Below are positions 27,019 to 64,000 of a stretch of DNA of 64,000 bases, piece by piece. How positions within the stretch are numbered: position 1 is the first letter of the stretch; every line of letters begins with the position of its first letter. The notes beneath the pieces are model-generated. The model was not told where the DNA came from, did not search any database, and was given only the letters and a program-made list of their open reading frames with translations. Position numbers and translations under genes: made by a program. Source of the stretch: Sulfitobacter sp. (GTDB taxonomy: Bacteria; Pseudomonadota; Alphaproteobacteria; Rhodobacterales; Rhodobacteraceae); contig JAGXHE010000127.1 in the NCBI GenBank assembly GCA_024636445.1, positions 1-64,000 of the forward strand, given 5' to 3'.

Positions 27019-28158
27019 TCAGGCGACCAGCCGCGCCGCGATGTCACCGGACAGATAGCTGACCCGCCCGCCCGAGACGGTCATGGCCACGCGGTCGGCG
27101 GCGTCCAGCACCACCAGATCGGCGCGCTTGCCGGGCTGTAATATGCCACGGTCGTCCAGCCCCAGCGCCCGCGCCGGTCCCTCTGACACCAGCGCCCAGG
27201 CGGCGGCAAAATCCAGCACACCAGACCGCGCCAGCATCAGTGCTGCACGGCGGGGGCTGGGATAGTGGTAGTCCGACGCCACCGCATCGGCCAGGCCCAT
27301 CGACACAACGTCCAGCGCCGAGACATTGCCCTTGTGCGATCCGCCGCGCACCAGATTGGGCGCGCCCAGAATGACCACATCGCCCGCAGCATGTGCCGCC
27401 TCGGCGGCCTCCAGCGTTTCGGGAAACTCCGACACCTTCACCCCGCGCACACGCCAGGCGGCGCGGGCCTCGGCAGTCTGGTCGTCGTGGCTGCCCATCT
27501 GCACGCCCATCTCCGCCAGTCTGGCGCAAAGCGTATCGAGCGCCGCAGGCACTTCGGCGCGGCGCGCGTGCAGGTCCAGCAGCATCTGGAAATGCACCTC
27601 CGGGTTGCGCTGCGCCTTCAACGCCTGCCCCACCAGTCGCGGCGGCTTGCGCCCTTCGGCCAGTCGCGCATGGGGCAGATGGTCGTTGAAAACCACGTAG
27701 CGCACGGCCCATTCCGCAATTCGTTCGGGCAATCCGGCGTAATTATCCAGCAGATGCGTCTCGAACCGCAGCTGCGGGCGCAGGTCCGTCACCAGCTTGC
27801 CCGCCGTGTCGCGGATCGCGGCAAAGACCTGATCCGCGAAATTCATACCGCGCAGGCCGCCCTCCCAGCTGACGAACTGCGCCAGAACGCCGGTGGTGAT
27901 GCCATTGGCGGCCAGTTCTGCCTCGGCGGCGACGAGACCCTCAGCCATCTGTTTCATCGCACCGCGACGCGGGGCCAGATGCCGCTCGAACCCGTCGCCA
28001 TGCACGTCGACGATACCGGGCAGCACGCGATACCCCGTCAGATCCACGCTGCGGCCCACGAGCGCATCTATGATCAACCCACCACTCAGGCTCAGCCCGT
28101 CGCGGTGAAACCCTTGGCGCCCCAGCACATCCGCGCCGGTGATATCAATCGTCAGCAT
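27019..28158 (-). CDS. phnM: alpha-D-ribose 1-methylphosphonate 5-triphosphate diphosphatase (PhnM-like)
   Basis: '[22 protein letters not shown]', '[16 protein letters not shown]', '[17 protein letters not shown]'. Confidence 0.9.
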
Positions 28159-59798: not shown

Positions 59799-60736
59799 GT
59801 CGCCTCCTTGCGCGACGAGCGGCCAAAGTCCGGGGCATCGGTGTCCTGTCCCGCCTCGATGATACTGCGGCGGATCGCGCGGGTGCGGGTGAAGTATTCG
59901 AACAGATGATCGCCGTCGCCGGTACGGATGGCGCGTTGCAGGGCGAACAGTTCTTCGGTGAAACGGCCCAGAATCTCCAGCGTCGCGTCCTTGTTGGTCA
60001 GGAACACGTCGCGCCACATGGTCGGGTCCGAGGCCGCGATGCGGGTAAAGTCGCGAAAGCCTGCGGCGGAATATTTGATGACTTCGCCATCGGTCACACG
60101 GCCCAGATCATCGGCCACGCCGACCATCGTATATGCGATCAGGTGCGGCGTGTGCGAGGTGACGGCCAGCACCAGATCGTGGTGGTCGGCGTCCATTTCT
60201 TCGACGTTTGCGCCCAGACCTTCCCACAAGGCGCGCAGTCGTGCGGTCGCTGCGGGGTCGGTGCCCTCGACCGGCACCAGCAGGCACCAGCGGTTGTCGA
60301 ACAGCGTCGCGAACCCCGATTCCGGGCCCGAATGTTCGGTCCCTGCCAGCGGGTGGCCGGGGATGAAATGCACGCCCTCGGGCAGCAGCGGGCCGACGCT
60401 GTTGATCACATCGCGCTTGACCGAACCCACATCGGTGACCGTCGCACCCTGCGCCAGATGCGGTGCGATCTCGGCGGCGACCGAAGCCATAGCCCCCACG
60501 GGCACCGCCAGCACCACCAGATCGGCGCCCGCCACGGCTTCTGCGGCAGTGTCGCAGACGCGGTCGGTCAGTCCAATGCGGCGCGCGGTATCGCGGGTCG
60601 CCTGGCTGCGCGCATAGCCTGTGACTTCGCCCGCCAGACCACCGCGCTGGAGCGCCCAATACATCGACGAGGCAATCAGCCCCAGACCGATCAGCGCAAT
60701 GCGGTTGTAGACAGGAGGCGTCGCGGGTGCGGTCAT
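59795..60736 (-). CDS. tyrA: prephenate/arogenate dehydrogenase family protein
   Basis: '[22 protein letters not shown]', '[12 protein letters not shown]', '[32 protein letters not shown]'. Confidence 0.95.
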
Positions 60737-61824
60737 GCGCTTTTGCCTTCCTTGAACTGGCGGACCGCATGGACAACACGGCGGCACGCGCTTTCGTCGC
60801 CGACGGTGACCCGCAGCGCCGCGGGCAGCTTGTAGCCTGCCACCTTGCGCACGATCAGCCCTTGGGCTTGCAACCATGCGTCACAGGCGTTTGCCTCATC
60901 GGCGCTGCCAAATCGGGCCAGCACGAAGTTGGCGTGGCTTACGTCCGACGGCACGCCCAGGGCGGCCAGTCCTTCGGCCAGAATGGTGCGGCAGCGGGCG
61001 TTTTCGCTGCGGCAATGATCGGCGTAGACCGTGTCTCGCACTGCGGCCTCGGCGGTGTCGAGTGCGGCCTGACCTATGTTGAACGGCCCGCGAATGCGGT
61101 TCAGCACGTCAATCACATGCGCAGGGCCATAGCCCCAGCCGATGCGCAGGCCGCCCAACCCGTAAAGCTTGGAAAACGTGCGTGTCATCACGACATTCTG
61201 GCGGCTGTCCACCAGAGCCGCGCCGCCGTCGTAGCCTTCGACGTAGTCGGCATAGGCACCGTCCAGCACCAGAAGCGCCTGTTTGGGCAACCCATCCGCC
61301 AGTCGCGCAATCTCGGCGTCCGAGATCATCGTGCCGGTGGGGTTGTTGGGGTTGGCGATGAACACCAGCCGGGTCTTCTTGTTGCACGCCGCCAGCAGCG
61401 CGTCGATGTCGGTGACGCGGTCGGCTTCCAGCACTTCGACCGGCGTCGCACCTGCTGCCCTGGCAGAGATCGAATACATGCCAAACCCGTGTACCGTGTG
61501 CACAACCTCGGTGCCCGGTCCGGCATAGGCCTGACAGAGGAACGCGATGATCTCATCCGAGCCGTTGCCGCAAATGATCCGCTCTGCGTCCACACCGTGC
61601 ACCTGCCCCAATGCCGCGCGCAGCGATGCGTGGTCGGTGGACGGATAGCGGTGCAACTGGTGCGCCGAACGGCGGAACGCCTCGATGGCCTTGTCGGACG
61701 GTCCCAGCGGGTTTTCGTTCGACGACAGCTTTACCGCGTTTTCAATACCGACCACATGACTGGTACCGCCCACGTATGGGTCGATGGTCATGATGCCGGG
61801 TTGTGGCGCTATGGCTTGGGTCAT
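60733..61824 (-). CDS. hisC: histidinol-phosphate aminotransferase
   Basis: '[22 protein letters not shown]', '[20 protein letters not shown]'. Confidence 0.95.
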
Positions 61825-61949
61825 GGGTTGGCTCCTTCGCCGCATGTTTTAGCGGGGCAATCGCGCCTACGCCATGCCCTTTTGCCTATGCAGAATTTTG
61901 CCAGTGCCTGTGTGTCTTCCTGTCCTTTCTATTGCGCCCTCAGAATACA

Positions 61950-61964
61950 GAACATAAAGTGAAC
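61950..61964 (+). promoter_or_regulatory. putative LexA box upstream of the radical SAM gene
   Basis: GAAC-ATAAAGT-GAAC, exact match to alphaproteobacterial GTTC-N7-GTTC (reverse complement); overlaps candidate -10. Confidence 0.7.
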
Positions 61965-61966
61965 AT

Positions 61967-63199
61967 ATGGTAAAAACACTCTCAGAAAAACTTGCGATTC
62001 TCTCGGATGCCGCCCGCTACGATGCGTCTTGCGCGTCGTCCGGTGGCACAAAGCGCGGCAGCCGCGACGGATCGGGGCTGGGGTCGAACGAAGGATCGGG
62101 GATCTGTCACGCCTATACGCCCGACGGGCGCTGTATCAGTCTGCTCAAAATTCTGATGACGAATTTCTGCATTTACGACTGTGCCTATTGCGTGAACCGC
62201 GTGTCATCCAACACGGTCCGCGCCCGCTTTACCCCCGAAGAAGTCGTCTCGCTGACCATCGAGTTTTATCGCCGCAATTATATCGAGGGGCTGTTTTTGT
62301 CCTCGGGCATCATCCAGTCGCCGGACAAGACAATGGAGGATATGGTACAGATCGCCCGCCTGCTGCGCACCCGCGAGAATTTTCGCGGCTATATCCATCT
62401 CAAGACGATCCCGGATGCCTCGCCCGAACTGATCGCGGCTGCGGGGCTATATGCCGATCGTTTGTCGATCAACGTGGAGTTGCCGACCGAGGCCGCCGTG
62501 GCCGCATATGCGCCCGAGAAAAACCCCGCGACGATCCGCGCGGCGATGCAGGACGTCAAGGAGGGCCGAGCGGCGTCCAAGGAGCGGTCGCACACCGGAA
62601 AACGCCCGCCGAAGTTCGCGCCCGCAGGCCAGTCGACCCAGATGATCGTTGGTGCCGACGGGTCGAACGACGCGACCATTCTGGGGCAGGCCAACAGTCT
62701 TTACGGCAATTTCGGCCTGAAACGGGTGTATTATTCCGCCTTCTCGCCAATCCCTGACAGCAGCGCCAAGCTGCCGCTGGTGCAGCCGCCGCTTGTGCGC
62801 GAACATCGGCTGTATCAGGCGGACTGGCTGCTGCGGTTCTACGGCTTTTCGGTGGACGAGATCACCAGCGTGACACAGGCAGGCAATCTCGATCTGGAGA
62901 TGGACCCGAAGCTGGCGTGGGCCATCGCGCACCGGGGGCTTTTCCCGGTGGACGTGCAAAATGCCCCGCGCGACATGCTGCTGCGCGTGCCCGGTTTCGG
63001 GGTCAAGACGGTCAACCGCATTCTGGGCACCCGACGCCAGCGCGGTCTGCGCTATGCCGACCTGCAACGCATGGGGGCGCTGTTGAAAAAGGCGCGGCCG
63101 TTCATAAGCCTGCGCGACTGGTCGCCGGGAAAGTTGATCGATACCGCCGACCTGCGGGCACGGTTCGCGCCGCCGCCCGAGCAGCTTAGCCTGTTCTGA
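61967..63199 (+). CDS. putative DNA modification/repair radical SAM protein (TIGR03916-like)
   Basis: CX3CX2C in 'TNFCIYDCAYCVNRVSSNTVRARFTPEEV'; C-terminal helix-hairpin-helix 'LLRVPGFGVKTVNRILGTRRQRGLRYADLQRMG'. Confidence 0.92.
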   Translation: MVKTLSEKLAILSDAARYDASCASSGGTKRGSRDGSGLGSNEGSGICHAYTPDGRCISLLKILMTNFCIYDCAYCVNRVSSNTVRARFTPEEVVSLTIEFYRRNYIEGLFLSSGIIQSPDKTMEDMVQIARLLRTRENFRGYIHLKTIPDASPELIAAAGLYADRLSINVELPTEAAVAAYAPEKNPATIRAAMQDVKEGRAASKERSHTGKRPPKFAPAGQSTQMIVGADGSNDATILGQANSLYGNFGLKRVYYSAFSPIPDSSAKLPLVQPPLVREHRLYQADWLLRFYGFSVDEITSVTQAGNLDLEMDPKLAWAIAHRGLFPVDVQNAPRDMLLRVPGFGVKTVNRILGTRRQRGLRYADLQRMGALLKKARPFISLRDWSPGKLIDTADLRARFAPPPEQLSLF

Positions 63200-64000
63200 T
63201 GCGCACGGTTGCCCTGCCCCGCATCGGCACGGCGCAGGCTTGGCGGGATGCTGCGCGCGGGCTTCTGGCCGAAGGCATCCGGCCCGAGGATGTGCTGTGG
63301 TCCTTCGACGATCCCGCACAGGTCGATCTGTTTGCTGCGCCCCCGCCGGTGATGCAGGCTGCGGCCACCACATCGGTGCCAAAATCTTTTGTGGACATGG
63401 CCAATCGCGTGGTCTGGCACAGTGATGCCGACCGCTTTGCACGGCTCTTTGCGTTTCTTTGGCGTCTGCGCGACAGGCCTGCGCTGATGCAGGATCGAGG
63501 CGATGCGCAACTGGCGCATCTGCGCGGGCTGGAAAAGAACGTGAACCGCTGCGCGCACAAGATGAAGGCATTCGTGCGGTTCCGCGATCTGGCCGATGAC
63601 GGCCCGCGCCGCCGCTTTGCTGCGTGGTTCGAGCCGACGCATCACACGGTCGAGCCTACCGCGAGCTTTTTCGCGCGCCGCTTTGGCGACATGGACTGGA
63701 TGATCGCCACGCCGGACGTGACCGCGCATTTCCGCGACGGCGACCTCAGCTTTGCCTCGGGCGAAGCACGCCCCGACCTGCCCGAGGATGCGACAGAGGA
63801 ACTTTGGGGGACGTATTTCTGCAACATCTTTAACCCTGCGCGGGTGAAGGTGCAGGCGATGACGTCGGAGATGCCAAAGAAATATTGGAAGAACATGCCA
63901 GAGACGCGCCACATCCCCCAGCTGCTGGCCAATGCCGAAGCCCGCGCCCGCGAGATGCAGGCGGCGGCCCCGACACTGCCGCCCCTGCGCGCCAAACGGA
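63199..64000 (+). CDS. TIGR03915/DUF4130-type putative DNA repair protein, open at right edge; possibly fused to UdgX domain
   Basis: TGATG overlap with radical SAM stop; no stop through 64000; MRTVALPRIGTAQAWRDAARGLLAEGIRPEDVLWSFDDPAQVDLFA...ELWGTYFCNIFNPARVKVQAMTSEMPKKYWKNMPET. Confidence 0.85.
   Translation, partial: MRTVALPRIGTAQAWRDAARGLLAEGIRPEDVLWSFDDPAQVDLFAAPPPVMQAAATTSVPKSFVDMANRVVWHSDADRFARLFAFLWRLRDRPALMQDRGDAQLAHLRGLEKNVNRCAHKMKAFVRFRDLADDGPRRRFAAWFEPTHHTVEPTASFFARRFGDMDWMIATPDVTAHFRDGDLSFASGEARPDLPEDATEELWGTYFCNIFNPARVKVQAMTSEMPKKYWKNMPETRHIPQLLANAEARAREMQAAAPTLPPLRAKR

What the first reader, a model, noticed from the sequence alone, without database searches (positions are those of the whole stretch)
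61925..64000. Radical-SAM / DUF4130-UdgX DNA repair pair with a perfect LexA box at the start codon
Seen directly: GAAC-ATAAAGT-GAAC at 61950-61964 matches the alphaproteobacterial LexA operator (GTTC-N7-GTTC) and lies 2 nt before the radical SAM ATG. TTGCGC-N17-TAAAGT is a plausible promoter whose -10 overlaps the box. That spacing predicts a leaderless, SOS-induced transcript covering the radical SAM gene and the coupled gene at 63199. Established: TIGR03916 radical SAM, TIGR03915/DUF4130 and UdgX are known to co-occur, but the chemistry of the radical SAM protein is to my knowledge unknown. UdgX is known to bind uracil-DNA covalently. Inference: a damage-induced system that handles uracil or another modified base. 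By chance GAAC-N7-GAAC is expected about once per strand in 64 kb, so the promoter position is the real evidence.
Basis: partly seen in the sequence, partly recalled or inferred. Interest (0 to 1): 0.85.

Follow-up and report, generated by a model that had tools for sequence, protein, structure and literature searches.

The report
SOS-controlled radical-SAM/UdgX DNA repair operon
A two-gene DNA-repair operon of unknown chemistry carries a predicted LexA (SOS) repressor site beside its start codon that is conserved in nearly every relative examined, which strongly suggests that the genes are switched on by DNA damage; that link was already reported in other bacteria, while what the enzymes do to DNA is still open.

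Summary
GAACATAAAGTGAAC (61950-61964) lies 2 nt before the ATG of a TIGR03916 radical SAM gene. By count it is unremarkable, but 133 of 135 non-redundant alphaproteobacterial orthologues carry GAAC-N7-GAAC or GTTC-N7-GTTC near the start codon, against 0.16% of background windows. In gamma/betaproteobacterial orthologues the class's own LexA box (CTGT-N8-ACAG) stands there instead (12 of 18, 15 with one mismatch). The promoter is in textbook register with the start codon (TTG at -35, TAtnnT at -12 to -7, +1 = A of ATG), so a leaderless LexA-repressed operon is strongly predicted. SOS control of this operon type is prior art (Caulobacter, Verrucomicrobia, Bacteroidetes). The "uracil system" reading is weakened: UdgX (real, but past the window end) is an optional tail gained or lost at least 6 times, and the operator stays without it. 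The conserved core is radical SAM + DUF4130. The radical SAM protein has three family-specific extra Cys (22, 47, 56) before CxxxCxxC and a helix-hairpin-helix, suggesting a DNA-bound enzyme with a second Fe-S cluster. DUF4130 is confidently modelled with no counterpart in the PDB. Substrate and chemistry remain unknown.

The parts
61932..61937 (+). -35 element TTGCGC, first T exactly 35 nt before the A of the ATG
   Evidence: TTG at -35/-34/-33 is the only upstream information peak outside the box in 70 orthologues with the same spacing
61950..61964 (+). Predicted LexA operator GAACATAAAGTGAAC (reverse complement GTTC-N7-GTTC)
   Evidence: conserved in 133/135 alphaproteobacterial orthologues
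61955..61960 (+). -10 element TAAAGT inside the operator (-12 to -7 from the ATG)
   Evidence: T99% at -12, A100% at -11, T60% at -7 in orthologues
61967..63199 (+). TIGR03916 radical SAM protein, 410 aa; CIYDCAYC triad, extra conserved C22/C47/C56, C-terminal helix-hairpin-helix RVPGFG
63199..64000 (+). TIGR03915/DUF4130 part of gene 2 (TGATG overlap with gene 1). The gene runs on past the window end to C159:64632, where the UdgX domain lies

Best explanation
A LexA-repressed, damage-induced two-gene operon with a leaderless promoter. LexA on GAAC-N7-GAAC covers the -10 element and the region up to the start codon and blocks RNA polymerase; RecA-stimulated LexA cleavage frees it, and transcription starts at the A of the ATG (predicted, not shown). 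The product is a DNA repair or base-modification unit whose core is a radical SAM enzyme that binds DNA through a C-terminal helix-hairpin-helix, plus its constant partner DUF4130. In this genome the DUF4130 protein carries a UdgX tail, which would excise uracil and link covalently to the abasic site, holding the complex at, or capping, such sites. The radical SAM protein probably carries a second Fe-S cluster on C22/C47/C56 and does radical chemistry on a damaged or unusual base. Supported by sequence here: operator, promoter register, operon, domain identities, conserved residues. Inferred: LexA binding, transcription start, DNA as substrate, second cluster, division of labour. My confidence is about 0.95 for LexA control, 0.85 for leaderless, 0.6 for DNA-acting radical chemistry and 0.4 for the second cluster.
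For: Box in 133/135 alphaproteobacterial orthologues against 13/7948 background windows and 0/135 in three control windows. The same motif stands before this genome's lexA, recA, uvrA, a uvrD/pcrA-type helicase and an ImuB/Y-family polymerase-like gene and before 28/30 recA genes of the relatives. Gamma/betaproteobacterial orthologues carry CTGT-N8-ACAG instead, 12/18. TTG starts at -38 to -34 from the start codon in 80/102 promoters with the box on the -10 and 18/22 with the box in the -35/-10 spacer, so the promoter stays fixed while the box moves; SD-like sequence in only 13/133. UdgX motifs GEQPG, KRRxH, HPSxxLR. C22, C47, H48, C56 conserved in 157-158 of 158 sequences and in Bacteroidota and Bacillota members. 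Helix-hairpin-helix resembles RuvA/ComEA weakly.
Against: No expression, binding or TSS data were available here. The Fe-S region of the AlphaFold model is low confidence (pLDDT mostly 33-52), so the cysteine geometry is untested. No direct evidence that the substrate is DNA. A divergent relative below the family cut-off (Gemmatirosa, 300 bits against 343.5) keeps the radical SAM triad and helix-hairpin-helix but lacks the extra cysteines.
Confidence: 0.82

Rival explanations
1. Uracil-centred repair: UdgX is the main actor and the radical SAM and DUF4130 proteins serve it, for example by resolving UdgX-DNA crosslinks or dealing with uracil left by error-prone polymerases.
For: UdgX motifs conserved in most fused members; 108 of 118 alphaproteobacterial gene-2 frames that end inside their locus carry it. 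PMC8565304 suggests a role for the glycosylases around SOS-induced polymerases.
Against: 10 alphaproteobacterial and 11 gamma/betaproteobacterial orthologues have DUF4130 without UdgX, several of those genomes have no TIGR03914 hit at all, and the tail changed state at least 6 times on the tree, while the SOS box stays.
Confidence: 0.2
2. SplB-like lesion reversal: the radical SAM protein repairs a UV-type pyrimidine lesion directly.
For: Aravind et al. [quoted passage not shown] SOS control fits.
Against: Only TIGR03916 and Pfam's generic radical SAM family are matched, and no spore photoproduct lyase model. The best fold matches are lipoyl synthase, viperin, MiaB and biotin synthase, generic and partial.
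Confidence: 0.15
3. The box is a conserved site for a regulator other than LexA, or simply conserved promoter sequence.
For: The box overlaps the -10 element, which would itself be conserved; no binding data.
Against: Both GAAC half-sites are exact in 133/135, although the -10 element lies between them; the box shifts about 12 nt into the spacer in 22 promoters with the -35 unchanged; gamma/betaproteobacteria swap in their own LexA box.
Confidence: 0.03

Closest known systems
SOS-regulated COG1573-COG4277 'UDG base excision repair' operon (Bacteroidetes; reported in Verrucomicrobia and Alphaproteobacteria; PMC8565304)
   Same: Same two-gene pairing of a UDG-bearing protein with, as far as I know, the TIGR03916-type helix-hairpin-helix radical SAM protein (COG4277), under lineage-specific LexA boxes
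   Different: Here promoter anatomy, orthologue-wide statistics, dispensability of UdgX and the extra cysteines are worked out; that COG4277 equals TIGR03916 is from memory
DUF4130 / SplB-like radical SAM / UDG association of Aravind et al. 2013 (PMC3765255)
   Same: Same domain association in an SOS context
   Different: The SplB likeness is not supported here by family models; in the passages read, no operator analysis of this operon
UdgX of Mycobacterium smegmatis (PDB 6ail, 6ajo, 8iie and others)
   Same: GEQPG, KRR-x-H loop and HPSxLLR aligned, E about 5e-43
   Different: Here fused behind DUF4130 in an SOS operon with a radical SAM enzyme; loop is KRRMH instead of KRRIH
Radical SAM enzymes with an N-terminal auxiliary cluster (lipoyl synthase, MiaB)
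   Same: Three conserved Cys before CxxxCxxC; top fold matches include LIAS and MiaB
   Different: Cys spacing differs (from memory of those families); the matches are generic radical SAM cores from a model of middling confidence

Membership tests
LexA (SOS) regulon, alphaproteobacterial type | GTTC-N7-GTTC / GAAC-N7-GAAC at the promoter, conserved in orthologues | tested here: met
   133/135 orthologues against 0.16% background; same motif at own lexA, recA, uvrA
LexA (SOS) regulon, alphaproteobacterial type | LexA binding and RecA/LexA-dependent induction by DNA damage | not testable with these tools
   needs EMSA/ChIP and RNA measurements
TIGR03916 radical SAM protein | score over the curated cut-off, CxxxCxxC | tested here: met
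   581.9 bits against 343.5; C68, C72, C75 invariant
TIGR03915/DUF4130 | score over the curated cut-offs | tested here: met
   204.9 against 112.25; Pfam 127.3 against 27
UdgX | TIGR03914 cut-off; GEQPG motif A, KRRxH loop with the crosslinking His, HPSxxLR motif B | tested here: met
   296.9 bits against 189.95; motifs; domain lies past the window end
UdgX | covalent link to abasic DNA after uracil excision | not testable with these tools
   needs protein
Spore photoproduct lyase (SplB) | match to an SplB family model | tested here: not met
   only TIGR03916 in NCBIfam and generic Radical_SAM in Pfam at E <= 0.001
Leaderless gene | -35 and -10 placed so that +1 is the start codon; no Shine-Dalgarno | tested here: met
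   TTG at -35 and TA at -12/-11 from the ATG; SD-like in 13/133
Leaderless gene | mapped 5' end at the start codon | not testable with these tools
   needs 5'-end mapping
Known anti-phage defence system | match in PADLOC-DB | tested here: not met
   no match for either protein

The most novel reading that the evidence does not exclude
The SOS response of many bacteria includes an undescribed DNA-directed radical SAM chemistry: a helix-hairpin-helix radical SAM enzyme with a second Fe-S cluster, working with the structurally unassigned DUF4130 protein to rewrite or reverse a base lesion, with UdgX only an optional module that crosslinks to uracil-derived sites.
Probability: 0.3. Interest if true: 0.8.

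Novelty: new member of a known kind. Interest (0 to 1): 0.45.

Why it matters
It places an uncharacterised but widespread pair (radical SAM + DUF4130) in the predicted LexA regulon of two proteobacterial lineages that use different LexA boxes, so selection keeps it damage-inducible. It also separates the pair from UdgX, which redirects the open question from uracil to the chemistry of the radical SAM enzyme, and names residues (C22, C47, C56) to mutate. The fixed leaderless promoter under a sliding operator is a compact natural case of operator turnover.

Tried and rejected
Counting the motif as evidence: rejected, window and genome counts are at chance. AlphaFold of the radical SAM protein to test whether C22/C47/C56 come together: the region is unreliable. 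Fold search for DUF4130: confident model (pLDDT 89) but no PDB match at E <= 0.001, best TM-score about 0.29. Conserved neighbours beyond the pair: none shared by more than 17 of 79 loci, and those look like shadow frames. Defence library: no match. Viral contigs: one relative only. Original papers da Rocha 2008, Erill 2004 and Erill 2016 are not held, so prior art is cited through PMC8565304.

Full report
OBSERVATION. The sequence is as described. GAACATAAAGTGAAC occupies 61950-61964, the ATG is at 61967, TTGCGC (61932-61937) and TAAAGT (61955-61960) are 17 nt apart, and the first T of the -35 element is exactly 35 nt before the A of the ATG. Gene 1, 61967-63199, is TIGR03916. Gene 2 starts inside the stop codon of gene 1 (TGATG) and matches TIGR03915/DUF4130. 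The window ends inside gene 2. On the contig it runs to 64632, and its C-terminal half is UdgX by TIGR03914 (296.9 bits, cut-off 189.95) with GEQPG, KRRMH and HPSYLLR. After it come rpsD and a tag-like gene on the other strand (recognised by eye).

CHANCE. Numbers of the bare motif are at chance: 2 in the window against 1.57 +/- 1.27 in shuffles, and 85 in the genome against 82 for the reversed pattern.

CONSERVATION. I collected orthologues with names (80 loci), from the same family and from the phylum. In the first 110 loci, 108 have the motif within 100 nt of the start. In the enlarged, de-duplicated set, 133 of 135 alphaproteobacterial orthologues have GAAC-N7-GAAC or GTTC-N7-GTTC there. 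None has it in control windows at -300 to -205, +100 or +300, and 13 of 7948 other 110-nt windows of the same loci have it. Both exceptions, L045 (GAACATTACCTGAAT) and L109 (GAACATATCATGTAC), carry a box with one mismatch. As positive control, 28 of 30 recA genes of the same genomes have the motif, mostly about 65 nt before the start. In the window's own genome it stands before lexA, recA, uvrA, a uvrD/pcrA-type helicase and an ImuB/Y-family polymerase-like gene. Named examples: Paracoccus denitrificans, Rhizobium leguminosarum, Azospirillum brasilense.

A SECOND LexA ALPHABET. Gamma- and betaproteobacterial LexA binds CTGT-N8-ACAG (established knowledge). Of 18 orthologues from the phylum outside the class, none has the GAAC box, 12 have CTGT-N8-ACAG directly before the gene and 3 more have it with one mismatch; a named case is Burkholderia sp. 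RPE67, CTGTATATACATACAG. A promoter that changes operator type with the lineage's LexA is hard to explain other than by LexA control.

PROMOTER. In 70 orthologues with a 2-nt gap between box and start codon, the upstream information peaks are TTG at -35/-34/-33 (1.27, 0.96, 1.13 bits), the two GAAC half-sites (2 bits each position), ATA at -13 to -11 and a weaker T at -7, counting the A of the ATG as +1. In this numbering, -35 and -10 (-12 to -7) are in textbook place for a start of transcription at the ATG. In 22 other promoters the box sits about 12 nt further up, inside the -35/-10 spacer, yet TTG still starts at -38 to -34 from the start codon in 18 of 22 (80 of 102 for the adjacent class; 7-10 of 124 in control windows). 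The promoter is tied to the start codon and the operator moves. SD-like sequence is seen in 13 of 133. This supports a leaderless transcript in a comparative way; no 5' end was measured.

UdgX IS OPTIONAL. Among gene-2 frames that end inside their locus, 108 alphaproteobacterial ones carry the UDG part and 10 (Yoonia, Celeribacter, Roseobacter types and others; L174, whose frame was unclear, left out) do not; in gamma/betaproteobacteria 6 do and 11 do not. Several genomes of the latter kind have no TIGR03914 match anywhere (G173, G313, G342, G358, G376). On the radical SAM tree the label changes at least 6 times by well-supported branches, 10 by parsimony (the count cannot tell gain from loss). 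The SOS box is kept in all 10 alphaproteobacterial cases and, with up to one mismatch, in 10 of 11 others. The unit under SOS control is therefore radical SAM + DUF4130.

THE RADICAL SAM PROTEIN. Over 158 sequences, C68, C72 and C75 (the SAM cluster triad) and also C47, H48 and C56 are invariant and C22 is conserved in 157. The same seven residues are kept in Bacteroidota, Bacillota and gut-phage-labelled sequences at 49-52% identity. A 38% relative from Gemmatirosa, below the family cut-off (300 against 343.5 bits), keeps the triad and the helix-hairpin-helix but has none of the three extra cysteines, so these look like a family trait. The C-terminal RVPGxG motif resembles helix-hairpin-helix DNA-binding parts of RuvA and ComEA (weak, E 0.015-0.5). 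I read this as a DNA-binding radical SAM enzyme with a likely second Fe-S cluster. AlphaFold could not test the geometry (pLDDT mostly 33-52 there); fold matches to lipoyl synthase, viperin, MiaB and biotin synthase are generic.

DUF4130. A confident model (mean pLDDT 89) has no PDB relative at E <= 0.001 and no convincing sequence relative in the PDB. Invariant H74, R117, H120, K121, R127, R137, W143, E145, R161, D197, W203, Y206, N212 and R215 look like an active or nucleic-acid-binding site (inference).

PRIOR ART. Aravind et al. 2013 (PMC3765255) linked DUF4130, SplB-like radical SAM proteins and UDGs in an SOS context. Sanchez-Osuna et al. 2021 (PMC8565304) found the COG1573-COG4277 operon under LexA-type motifs in Bacteroidetes and state that SOS control of this system was reported in Verrucomicrobia and Alphaproteobacteria, citing Erill 2016 and da Rocha 2008. 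The regulatory claim is therefore not new in kind. I found no paper in the library on the chemistry of TIGR03916 or DUF4130.

VERDICT. Well-supported LexA-operon prediction, a new instance of a known kind. The uracil reading should be demoted. What is open and testable is the radical SAM chemistry.

Noticed in passing
L084 and L158 (genome G135); L109 and L132 (genome G050): G135's recA promoter lacks GAAC-N7-GAAC although its radical SAM gene has it; in G050 both recA and the radical SAM gene lack an exact box (the latter has GAACATATCATGTAC), hinting at a drifted LexA motif.
   Followed up: no
L231 3475-6063 and L243: Acinetobacter (a record labelled phage, and an A. baumannii record) carries radical SAM + DUF4130 without UdgX and without either LexA box type in the promoter.
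   Followed up: partly
L232 45-4581 (Bacteroides phage BKO1-TP1): An antibiotic-induced Bacteroides phage carries a DUF4130 gene at its genome end, near thymidylate synthase and a DNA methyltransferase.
   Followed up: no
L242 3001-4143 (Gemmatirosa plasmid): Divergent TIGR03916 relative below the cut-off that lacks the three extra cysteines but keeps the radical SAM triad and the helix-hairpin-helix; possibly a separate subfamily.
   Followed up: partly
window 27874-27888: Second GAAC-N7-GAAC of the window lies inside open reading frames (349 and 404 aa on the two strands), so probably chance.
   Followed up: yes
window 60733-61845 (-): Divergent histidinol-phosphate aminotransferase-like gene shares the roughly 120-nt intergenic region with the SOS promoter.
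   Followed up: no
plasmid records: The pair is often on plasmids or chromids (164 records, 58 of them Phaeobacter), nearly all predicted non-mobilizable.
   Followed up: no
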